A stretch of DNA of 31,814 nt from Deltaproteobacteria bacterium (GTDB lineage: Bacteria; Desulfobacterota; DSM-4660; Desulfatiglandales; Desulfatiglandaceae), in NCBI GenBank assembly GCA_003646995.1, contig QMLZ01000009.1, forward strand, positions 1 to 31,814. Reading direction: 5' to 3'. Positions 9,809 to 11,383 of this stretch are shown in pieces. The translations under genes were made by a program, and so were the position numbers. The notes under the pieces were generated by a model. The model made no database searches. It was not told where the DNA came from and worked only from the letters and a program-made list of their open reading frames with translations. The stretch's first letter is position 1, and every line of letters begins with the position of its first letter.

Positions 9809-11383
9809 TCAGCATTTCCTTATTTCTATCTTGCCCGCCAAGTATTCTTTGACCTTCCGAATCGGCACTTCGTTTCTGTGAAAGATGCCGGCTGCAAGGG
9901 CGGACTCGGCCCGTGTCTTGGTGAACACCTCATAGAAGTGCTCTTCACAGCCAGCCCCGCTGGAGGCAATGACCGGGATGCTGACGGCCTCCTTTACAGC
10001 ATTTATCAGTTCGATGTCAAAGCCTAGATTCGTTCCGTCCCTATCAATGCAGTTCAGTAGTATCTCTCCGGCCCCCAGCTCCTCTCCTACCTTTGCCAGT
10101 GTCACGGCATCCAGGTCTCTACGTTCTCTTCCCCCGTTTATGGTGCATTGGTACCAGCAAAATTGCTCACCGTTCGGGCCCGGGATAGAGGTTTCGATCA
10201 CGTGGTGCTTTACTTCGGCAGGAGATCGCACATAGACCCTTTTAGGATCAATGGATATGACTACTGCCTGATTACCATAAACTCTGGAGATCTCTTCAAT
10301 GGTACTCTTTCCTGTGCCCTTTCCACGTTGAAGGTATCTTTCGGCGATAAGCACAGCGTCACTTCCTATGGATACTTTGTCCGCACCTGAGCGAAAGTAT
10401 TCAGAAGCCACTTCCAAAGCTGAATAGTGCTTTCCTCTCTTATCCGTATAATCCCGGATTCCGCCACCAATGGTCAGAGGAACAAAAACGTTTTCCGAAG
10501 TACGGCGAAGCACCTCCAGCATAGGAATGTCTTCCAGAGGAAAATCCCTGAACCCGGTTATGTTAAGGAAGGTTATCTCATCTGCCCCTTCCTCATAGTA
10601 ACGTCTGGCAAGACTAACAGGTTTGCCAAGGTTTCTGACCTGCCCTTTTTCCCTGACATCGTATTGGTCCCCCTTAGTCACCACTAAGTCACCTCGATCA
10701 TTGGTCCTTACGTCCAAACACGCAATGATTCTCTTGGCTAATTTGGTAATACTTGGAGATTTAGGGGGACGGACCGGTGTTGTGGAGGGTTCTAAAAAAT
10801 TTTTCAATAGCATGAGGCCGGGGTTCCCGCTCTTTTCAGGGTGAAATTGTGTGGCGATCACGGCCCCCTTTTGTACAGAACTTACAAATTTGTAACCATA
10901 GTCGGTTGTGGTGAGGATGATCTCTTTTTCCTGGGGGACCACATGGTAAGAATGCACGAAATAGAATTTTTCTTCCCCCTTAAGTCCATTAAATATCCTG
11001 GATGGTTGGACGCAGGTAATGCCGTTCCATCCTATGTGCGGTACGGAAAGGTCAATGCTAAAGCGCTTGACCCTTCCCTTGAATATGCCAAGGCCAGCAA
11101 CCCCCGGTGCTTCTTCACTGCTGTCGAACAGTACTTGAAGACCGAGGCAGATCCCGAAGAATGGGCGGCCGCTGAGAATGTACGAACGTAGAGGCTCAAC
11201 AAAGCCCTTCGAGGTGAGGTTATGCATGATTTGTCCAAAGTTGCCAACACCCGGGAAGACTATTTGCTTGGCGTCTGTTATATCTTTTGGAGTCTTGATG
11301 AACTTAACGTCGTAACCAAGGCTCTTGATGGCATTGACCACACTTCGGACATTGCCAGCCCCATAATCCAACAATGACACCAT
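9809..11383 (-). CDS. hisHF: bifunctional imidazole glycerol phosphate synthase, HisH-HisF fusion of eukaryotic type
   Basis: One polypeptide joins the glutaminase and cyclase of histidine synthesis, which convert PRFAR and glutamine to imidazole glycerol phosphate and AICAR. Numbering from the ATG: class I amidotransferase at 1-200 with Cys79 (in 'GICLGLQ') and His181/Glu183 ('QFHPEKSG'), a short proline-rich linker near 200-214, then the HisF barrel with catalytic Asp224 ('ACLDVR') and Asp379 ('ISIDPKR'). The barrel has long extra loops ('KGDQYDVREKG', 'PGPNGEQFCWYQCT') typical of yeast HIS7 and plant HISN4 and not of ordinary bacterial HisF. I chose ATG 11383 because it has GGAG 7 bp upstream; an in-frame TTG at 11422 lies in the upstream terminator's U-run. 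No other his gene is near. Confidence 0.95.
   Translation of the reverse strand: MVSLLDYGAGNVRSVVNAIKSLGYDVKFIKTPKDITDAKQIVFPGVGNFGQIMHNLTSKGFVEPLRSYILSGRPFFGICLGLQVLFDSSEEAPGVAGLGIFKGRVKRFSIDLSVPHIGWNGITCVQPSRIFNGLKGEEKFYFVHSYHVVPQEKEIILTTTDYGYKFVSSVQKGAVIATQFHPEKSGNPGLMLLKNFLEPSTTPVRPPKSPSITKLAKRIIACLDVRTNDRGDLVVTKGDQYDVREKGQVRNLGKPVSLARRYYEEGADEITFLNITGFRDFPLEDIPMLEVLRRTSENVFVPLTIGGGIRDYTDKRGKHYSALEVASEYFRSGADKVSIGSDAVLIAERYLQRGKGTGKSTIEEISRVYGNQAVVISIDPKRVYVRSPAEVKHHVIETSIPGPNGEQFCWYQCTINGGRERRDLDAVTLAKVGEELGAGEILLNCIDRDGTNLGFDIELINAVKEAVSIPVIASSGAGCEEHFYEVFTKTRAESALAAGIFHRNEVPIRKVKEYLAGKIEIRKC

What the first reader, a model, noticed from the sequence alone, without database searches (positions are those of the whole stretch)
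9809..11383. Eukaryote-type HisH-HisF fusion in a bacterial chromosome
Seen: amidotransferase and cyclase are one chain in the order HisH-linker-HisF, with the long barrel loops 'KGDQYDVREKG' and 'PGPNGEQFCWYQCT' and the 'NITGFRDFPL' strand. Known: ordinary bacteria use two separate subunits whose HisF lacks these loops, while yeast HIS7 and plant HISN4 have both the fusion and the loops. Inference: either the bacterial lineage carries the ancestor-like form of the eukaryotic gene or it gained it by transfer. The gene stands alone, outside a his operon, behind a terminator.
Basis: partly seen in the sequence, partly recalled or inferred. Interest (0 to 1): 0.8.

Follow-up and report, generated by a model that had tools for sequence, protein, structure and literature searches.

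The report
Yeast-type fused histidine enzyme in bacteria
This bacterial gene makes a two-in-one histidine enzyme of the kind known from yeast and plants; it is common in one bacterial group rich in sulfate reducers, and relatives with a half-built version suggest that the enzyme was assembled in bacteria and later passed to eukaryotes.

Summary
Window 9809-11383 (-) encodes a 524-residue HisH-linker-HisF imidazole glycerol phosphate synthase, closest in structure to yeast HIS7, with the extra HisF loops of yeast and plants. It is not contamination: the long-loop form is in 68 of 395 genomes drawn from the phylum of its named relatives, 59 read as a fused frame. It is not new either: Fani et al. 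2007 saw fusion and inserts in two delta-proteobacteria and proposed transfer from plants. My evidence points the other way. One class of the phylum (3 of 3 held genomes) has an unfused HisF with loops 1, 4 and 5 but without loops 2 and 3. It is sister to all sampled fused forms, and fungi and plants nest inside the bacterial fused clade. So the enzyme was probably built stepwise in bacteria and then given to eukaryotes. Caveat: AU tests do not reject bacteria as one clade (p 0.19-0.30), the bacteria next to eukaryotes differ between trees, and eukaryotes were sampled only as fungi and flowering plants.

The parts
9809..11383 (-). hisHF: fused imidazole glycerol phosphate synthase, 524 aa
10790..11383 (-). 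HisH glutaminase domain, aa 1-198; C79, H181, E183 invariant in a 28-row alignment
   Evidence: TIGR01855 221 bits; the role of these three residues as the glutaminase triad is recalled
10742..10789 (-). linker, aa 199-214
   Evidence: between the two domain matches
9827..10741 (-). HisF cyclase (beta/alpha)8 barrel, aa 215-519; D224 and D379 invariant in a 28-row alignment
   Evidence: TIGR00735 319.7 bits; D11/D130 of T. maritima from PMC11350729
10646..10705 (-). loop 1 inserts (aa 227-231 and 242-246), beta1-alpha1
   Evidence: average insert length: fused groups 5.0 and 5.3-8.0, three intermediates 5.0 and 6.0, nine separate HisF 0 (in the alignment the first insert is placed in other columns); position from model
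10535..10543 (-). loop 2 insert FPL (aa 281-283), beta2-alpha2
   Evidence: 3 aa in all fused groups, 0 in three intermediates and 22 separate HisF
10406..10438 (-). loop 3 insert (aa 316-326), beta3-alpha3
   Evidence: 11 aa in fused groups, absent in three intermediates and in separate HisF
10304..10339 (-). loop 4 insert (aa 349-360), after beta4
   Evidence: 11-13 aa in fused, 12 in intermediates, 0 in 22 separate HisF
10157..10225 (-). loop 5 region (aa 387-409, PGPNGEQFCW), beta5-alpha5
   Evidence: 23-26 aa in fused, 23 in intermediates, 1-31 in 22 separate HisF; diagnostic by its sequence
11421..11459 (-). intrinsic-terminator-like hairpin between the aldehyde ferredoxin oxidoreductase family gene and hisHF
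11483..13213 (-). upstream neighbour: aldehyde ferredoxin oxidoreductase family (context only)
9209..9751 (+). convergent neighbour: nitroreductase family (context only)

Best explanation
The gene encodes a fused IGP synthase. The HisH domain releases ammonia from glutamine; ammonia passes through the barrel to the HisF active site, where PRFAR is turned into IGP and AICAR (function from homology and known chemistry; not assayed). History, inferred: in a bacterial lineage of this phylum a separate HisF first gained the long loops 1, 4 and 5 on the substrate-side face of the barrel while still working with a separate HisH. HisH was then joined in front of it and loops 2 and 3 were added. The fused gene spread through the phylum, to a few members of the phylum of L053 ('SAR324') and to Archaeoglobales, and a bacterial copy became HIS7/HISN4 of eukaryotes. 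Shown: the fusion, the loops, the distribution in the sampled genomes, the unfused long-loop class, and the favoured trees. Inferred: order of steps, direction, donor.
For: Domains, catalytic residues and predicted fold match yeast HIS7 (Foldseek E 5e-64, TM 0.90/0.88, 51% identity). Of 12 genomes chosen because they carry the fusion, 10 have no other HisF above 200 bits; IGP dehydratase, the next enzyme, is in 13 of 15 genomes searched. Unfused long-loop HisF in 3 of 3 held genomes of one class, with loops 1, 4, 5 and without 2, 3; sister to all sampled fused (100/99). Their separate HisH (found in 2 of 3) lies among ordinary HisH, which argues against fission. Fungi and plants lie inside the bacterial fused clade in both halves and in two concatenations; bacterial fused rows (one of them archaeal, L145) form one side of a branch in 0 of 200 bootstrap trees each time. 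Signature sites: 0 where eukaryotes keep the intermediate state and at least 90% of bacteria share another; 4 where deep bacteria keep it and upper bacteria share the eukaryotic state.
Against: AU tests do not reject the bacterial fused genes as one clade: p 0.255, 0.20, 0.303 (without fungi), 0.188 (HisH), 0.278 (HisF). The branch to the outgroup is long (the tool warns of long branches meeting), so the root is uncertain. Several forks around the eukaryotes are weakly supported (for example 85/72, 89/82, 99/65; 82/87, 96/74), and the nearest bacteria differ: G198 and G594 lie near eukaryotes but elsewhere. Fungi and plants are separate in the HisH and concatenated trees but together in the HisF tree; holding them together is not rejected (p 0.377, 0.368). 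Eukaryotes are only yeasts, one Didymella and flowering plants. The intermediate class has three genomes. A long loop 5 of other sequence occurs in some separate HisF. The 'deep' bacteria were chosen from the tree; the same count found 1 site where eukaryotes alone changed.
Confidence: 0.7

Rival explanations
1. Eukaryote-to-bacteria transfer: the fusion arose in eukaryotes and a plant-like HIS7 was given to delta-proteobacteria, then spread (Fani et al. 2007).
For: Published view from 3 bacterial sequences (PMC1963479). AU tests cannot exclude it. Plants sit close to one bacterial subclade.
Against: Trees from both halves favour the opposite by 12 to 20 log units; 0 of 200 bootstrap trees have bacteria as one side. 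The nearest unfused relative found is bacterial.
Confidence: 0.2
2. The stand-alone long-loop HisF is a product of fission: a fused gene lost its HisH half and loops 2 and 3.
For: Only three genomes of one class; gene splitting is known in general (recalled).
Against: It branches outside all sampled fused forms (100/99); the separate HisH of two of these genomes is ordinary and not kin to the fused HisH half; at loops 2 and 3 it has the length of ordinary HisF.
Confidence: 0.1
3. Fungi and plants each took the gene from bacteria separately.
For: They are not sisters in the HisH and concatenated trees.
Against: They are sisters in the HisF tree (99/88), and holding them together is not rejected (p 0.377, 0.368). 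Fungi are on a long branch.
Confidence: 0.15
4. Eukaryotic contamination or a chimeric contig.
For: Resemblance to yeast and plant enzymes.
Against: An uninterrupted frame; base composition like the bacterial flanks; 81% identity to a protein named Desulfobacterales (P0003); many genomes, including a contig of the strain Thermodesulfatator autotrophicus S606 (L017).
Confidence: 0.01
5. Independent (convergent) fusion in bacteria and eukaryotes.
For: Independent fusion may occur: G685 has one 507-aa frame with HisH and short-loop HisF.
Against: The loop inserts are shared, and each half puts all long-loop fused rows in one clade (100/99 and 100/98).
Confidence: 0.02

Closest known systems
Yeast HIS7 (PDB 1jvn, 1ox4-1ox6)
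   Same: Order HisH-linker-HisF, all loops, fold; 54% identity over the whole length, 68% over HisF
   Different: Loop 1b about 3 residues longer than in most bacterial rows; HisH half only 40% identical
Plant HISHF (HISN4)
   Same: Same order and loops; 60-62% identity in four plants, 68-70% over HisF
   Different: About 50-63 residues before the matched part, several named chloroplastic; loop 1b 8 residues against about 5
Fused HisHF of delta-proteobacteria (Fani et al. 2007, PMC1963479) and Archaeoglobales (PMC11237513)
   Same: The same gene family; the window is another member
   Different: Read in 2007 as a eukaryotic gift to bacteria; the 2024 paper notes about 70% identity to sulfate reducers without giving a direction in the passages seen
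Separate bacterial HisH and HisF
   Same: Same two domains
   Different: Two chains; inserts 1b, 2, 3, 4 absent in 22 of 22 rows, loop 5 variable; 33-45% identity over HisF in the sampled genomes

Membership tests
Fused eukaryote-type IGP synthase (HIS7/HISN4) | One chain in the order HisH-HisF | tested here: met
Fused eukaryote-type IGP synthase (HIS7/HISN4) | Inserts in HisF loops 1-5 shared with yeast and plants | tested here: met
Fused eukaryote-type IGP synthase (HIS7/HISN4) | Conserved C-H-E of HisH and two Asp of HisF | tested here: met
   C79, H181, E183, D224, D379 invariant in 28 rows
Fused eukaryote-type IGP synthase (HIS7/HISN4) | Both halves group with the eukaryotic halves, apart from separate HisH and HisF | tested here: met
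   100/99 (HisF) and 100/98 (HisH)
Fused eukaryote-type IGP synthase (HIS7/HISN4) | Catalyses PRFAR + glutamine to IGP + AICAR | not testable with these tools
   needs assay
Separate bacterial HisH/HisF | Two chains, HisF without long loops | tested here: not met
WbuZ / AglZ HisF-like sugar-modification proteins | Score above the NCBIfam cut-off | tested here: not met
   158.8 of 299.7 and 113.3 of 310 bits

The most novel reading that the evidence does not exclude
Eukaryotic HIS7/HISN4 descends from Desulfobacterota: the enzyme was assembled there in two steps (long loops 1, 4, 5 on a free HisF, then fusion with HisH plus loops 2 and 3), the first step is preserved today in an unnamed class of the phylum, and the donor to eukaryotes lay near a subclade of one order (probably Desulfobulbales).
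Probability: 0.62. Interest if true: 0.72.

Novelty: new member of a known kind. Interest (0 to 1): 0.55.

Why it matters
A 2021 paper still calls the origin of HIS7 open: fused in the ancestor of eukaryotes, or taken from 'a (still unknown) prokaryote'; it tested and excluded one Bacteroidota candidate (PMC8305728). The distribution and the unfused long-loop class name a donor phylum and give a possible missing intermediate, so the question can be tested. It would add a metabolic gene to eukaryotic genes with kin in a bacterial group rich in sulfate reducers, and the loop-by-loop series allows the role of each loop to be measured.

Tried and rejected
Contamination was rejected. A search of the window's own genome was impossible because none is held, so 'no separate hisH and hisF in the same genome' was tested only in relatives. 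Rfam search of the window gave no match. Plasmids gave one ordinary separate hisF/hisH pair; phages gave nothing. I looked for a conserved neighbourhood and found none.

A further divergent HisF in G003 (L118) and a separate HisH/HisF pair in G002 (L119) were set aside as a paralogue and a WbuZ-like pair: both HisF score below the HisF cut-off. L118 and L119 were in the HisF tree and L119 in the HisH tree. Of the 22 separate HisF rows, 9 were used; left out were L118, L119, the fast rows L109-L112 and L153, and L152, L154, L155, L156, L158, L159 (no HisH paired in the same locus). Searches used 34 of 46 thinned fused rows plus the window; the 12 left out score closest to the window. Searches used 57 loci plus the window: 44 of 58 thinned rows from 176 complete fused frames, 14 dropped for size, plus 13 chosen by hand, 11 of them near the eukaryotes. 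Fungi and plants: 10 + 10, then 6 + 6, of 120 + 120 listed. AU runs that held the intermediates with fungi or with plants did not finish and were dropped; the fungi-only AU test did not finish.

Taxonomy of the G genomes and of the window is not given by the tools; 'Desulfobacterota' and 'Desulfobulbales' for them are my inference from named rows (for example L071, L056, L017, L020).

Full report
What is there. The frame 9809-11383 (-) encodes 524 residues. HisH covers aa 2-198 and HisF aa 215-519, both above the NCBIfam cut-offs. Among solved structures, yeast HIS7 is by far the best match (E 2e-183, aa 2-516; next best E 4e-52, HisF only). An AlphaFold2 model (mean pLDDT 87, pTM 0.89; residues 240-242 and 275-281 below 50) matches six yeast HIS7 chains first (TM 0.88-0.90 on the query, 50-51% identity), then HisF or HisH alone. 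Identity to four plant proteins is 60-62% overall and 68-70% over HisF; to five fungal proteins 53-56% and 63-68%.

Loops. Against separate HisF, the fused proteins carry inserts at aa 227-231 and 242-246 (loop 1), 281-283 (loop 2), 316-326 (loop 3), 349-360 (loop 4) and 387-409 (loop 5) (nine separate rows). In the alignment the inserts 1b, 2, 3 and 4 are absent in 22 of 22 separate rows; loop 5 varies from 1 to 31 residues there, so it is told by sequence (PGPxGExYCWFQC-like) and not by length. By the secondary structure of the model the inserts follow strands 1 to 5 of the barrel. In T. maritima HisF the strand-1 loop closes over the substrate and controls turnover (PMC11350729, passages seen), so I infer that the inserts act at the substrate side; HisH docks on the other face (recalled). 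No coordinates were inspected.

Context. The upstream gene is an aldehyde ferredoxin oxidoreductase family member and the convergent neighbour a nitroreductase family member. A hairpin with a T run lies between the oxidoreductase gene and hisHF. Of the 32 other ORFs of 120 aa or more, 19 were given to Pfam and none is a his gene. Across 49 loci no true neighbour is shared by more than 11 (some flanks are cut by contig ends).

Distribution. In genomes drawn from the phylum of Desulfoferrobacter (G006), 30 of 198 have a full-length fused match and 2 more are cut by contig ends. In the larger draw, 68 of 395 have a long-loop HisF: 65 in long frames or cut at a contig end, 3 stand-alone; the other listed matches down to 1e-60 are ordinary HisF, with a gap between E 7e-86 and 3e-71. 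Of the 65, 59 were read as a fused frame; G193, G174 and G196 have a full-length match in one frame; G342 and G220 are judged only by frame length (535 and 565 aa); G154 shows only the HisF part at a contig end. In the order of G206, 48 of 58 genomes have a match of the fused type, 43 of them nearly full length; in the order of G198, 26 of 58, one cut short. In the phylum of L053, 4 of 52; in that of the Archaeoglobales record, 1 of 148. Twelve genomes chosen because they carry the fusion were searched for other copies: 10 of 12 have no other HisF above 200 bits; G002 has a further HisH/HisF pair (HisF 265 bits), G003 a further HisF (280 bits). IGP dehydratase was found in 13 of 15 genomes (missing in G004 and G106).

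The half-built form. Three genomes (G032, G070, G106), which are all the held genomes of one order and one class, have a HisF of 298-308 residues, 55-56% identical to the window's HisF against 33-45% for ordinary HisF, above the HisF cut-off (326-333 bits). It has loops 1, 4 and 5 and lacks loops 2 and 3. HisH lies on another contig in G032 and G070; none was found in G106, which also lacks the IGP dehydratase hit and may be incomplete.

Trees. In the trees 'bacterial' fused rows include one archaeal row (L145). HisF, columns mostly empty in separate HisF left out, 80 rows: separate HisF on one side; then the half-built form as sister of all fused (100/99); then bacteria with fungi+plants (99/88) nested among them. 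HisH, 80 rows: all fused form one clade (100/98); the HisH of the half-built genomes lies among ordinary HisH; eukaryotes are again inside, plants and fungi apart. Concatenation with separate pairs as outgroup, 82 rows, and with the half-built HisF as outgroup, 73 rows: eukaryotes fall in one 32-row subclade (98/91 and 99/94) with the Archaeoglobales row and 19 bacteria, 18 of which are in the draw from the order of G206. Without fungi, plants stay in the corresponding subclade (100/100); without plants, fungi do (99/93). Bacterial fused rows are one side of a branch in 0 of 200 bootstrap trees in all six trees.

Results against this reading. The AU test does not reject bacterial fused genes as one clade in any set tested: log-likelihood differences 18.1, 18.7, 12.0, 12.3, 20.2 and p 0.255, 0.20, 0.303, 0.188, 0.278. 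The outgroup branch is long, the tool warns of long branches meeting, and the bootstrap had not settled in three of the four main trees. Support around the eukaryotes is moderate in the single-half trees, and the nearest bacteria change: G198 and G594 are near eukaryotes, not. The relation of fungi to plants is not settled. The character count (0 against 4 sites, and 1 site where eukaryotes alone changed) points the same way as the trees but uses a tree-chosen group.

Known or new. PMC1963479 (passages seen) reported fused HisHF with shared insertions in two delta-proteobacteria and proposed transfer from plants. PMC11237513 (passages) reported it in two Archaeoglobales. PMC8305728 (one section and passages) leaves the origin of HIS7 open. 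Passages of PMC10138114, PMC6214176 and PMC7284861 say nothing on the donor. Eight searches of the paper library listed no paper that I recognised from title or abstract as proposing Desulfobacterota as donor or describing an unfused long-loop HisF; most subscription journals and all preprints are missing from it, and the other listed papers, apart from those named here and PMC11350729, were not opened. So the window gene is a further member of a known kind; the reversed direction and the half-built class look new.

A side result: G685 holds what looks like an independent fusion, one 507-residue frame of HisH and short-loop HisF, which suggests that joining the two does not need the long loops. 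It is a single genome, and a sequencing error at the stop between neighbours is possible.

Noticed in passing
L089 4996-5892 (-), L090 3746-4672 (-), L091 5731-6627 (+): Stand-alone HisF with loops 1, 4, 5 but not 2, 3 in all three held genomes of one class; neighbours include a radical-SAM-like protein, a NYN-nuclease-like protein and a PlsY-like protein (names recalled from sequence, not scanned).
   Followed up: yes
L224 948-2468 (-) (G685): Apparent independent single-frame fusion of HisH with an ordinary short-loop HisF, 507 aa; kin such as G658 and G689 have the two genes in tandem separated by one stop.
   Followed up: partly
L118 4872-5642 (-) (G003): Extra divergent HisF (280 bits, under the HisF cut-off) without a second HisH in a genome that also has the fused gene.
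   Followed up: partly
L119 4149-5762 (-) (G002): Extra adjacent HisH and HisF pair, HisF best matching WbuZ but under its cut-off, in a genome that also has the fused gene.
   Followed up: partly
L080/L145 (G011), L147-L150: Long-loop fused hisHF in one Archaeoglobales genome and in 4 of 52 genomes of the phylum of the record labelled SAR324; likely transfers between phyla.
   Followed up: partly
order of G206: Members of one order carry two kinds of fused hisHF that fall in different parts of the tree, for example G100/G129/G026 against G206/G157/G386, suggesting transfer inside the phylum.
   Followed up: no
window 13317-15374 (+): Fused TRAP transporter permease (TIGR02123, 600.6 bits) divergent from the aldehyde ferredoxin oxidoreductase family gene.
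   Followed up: no
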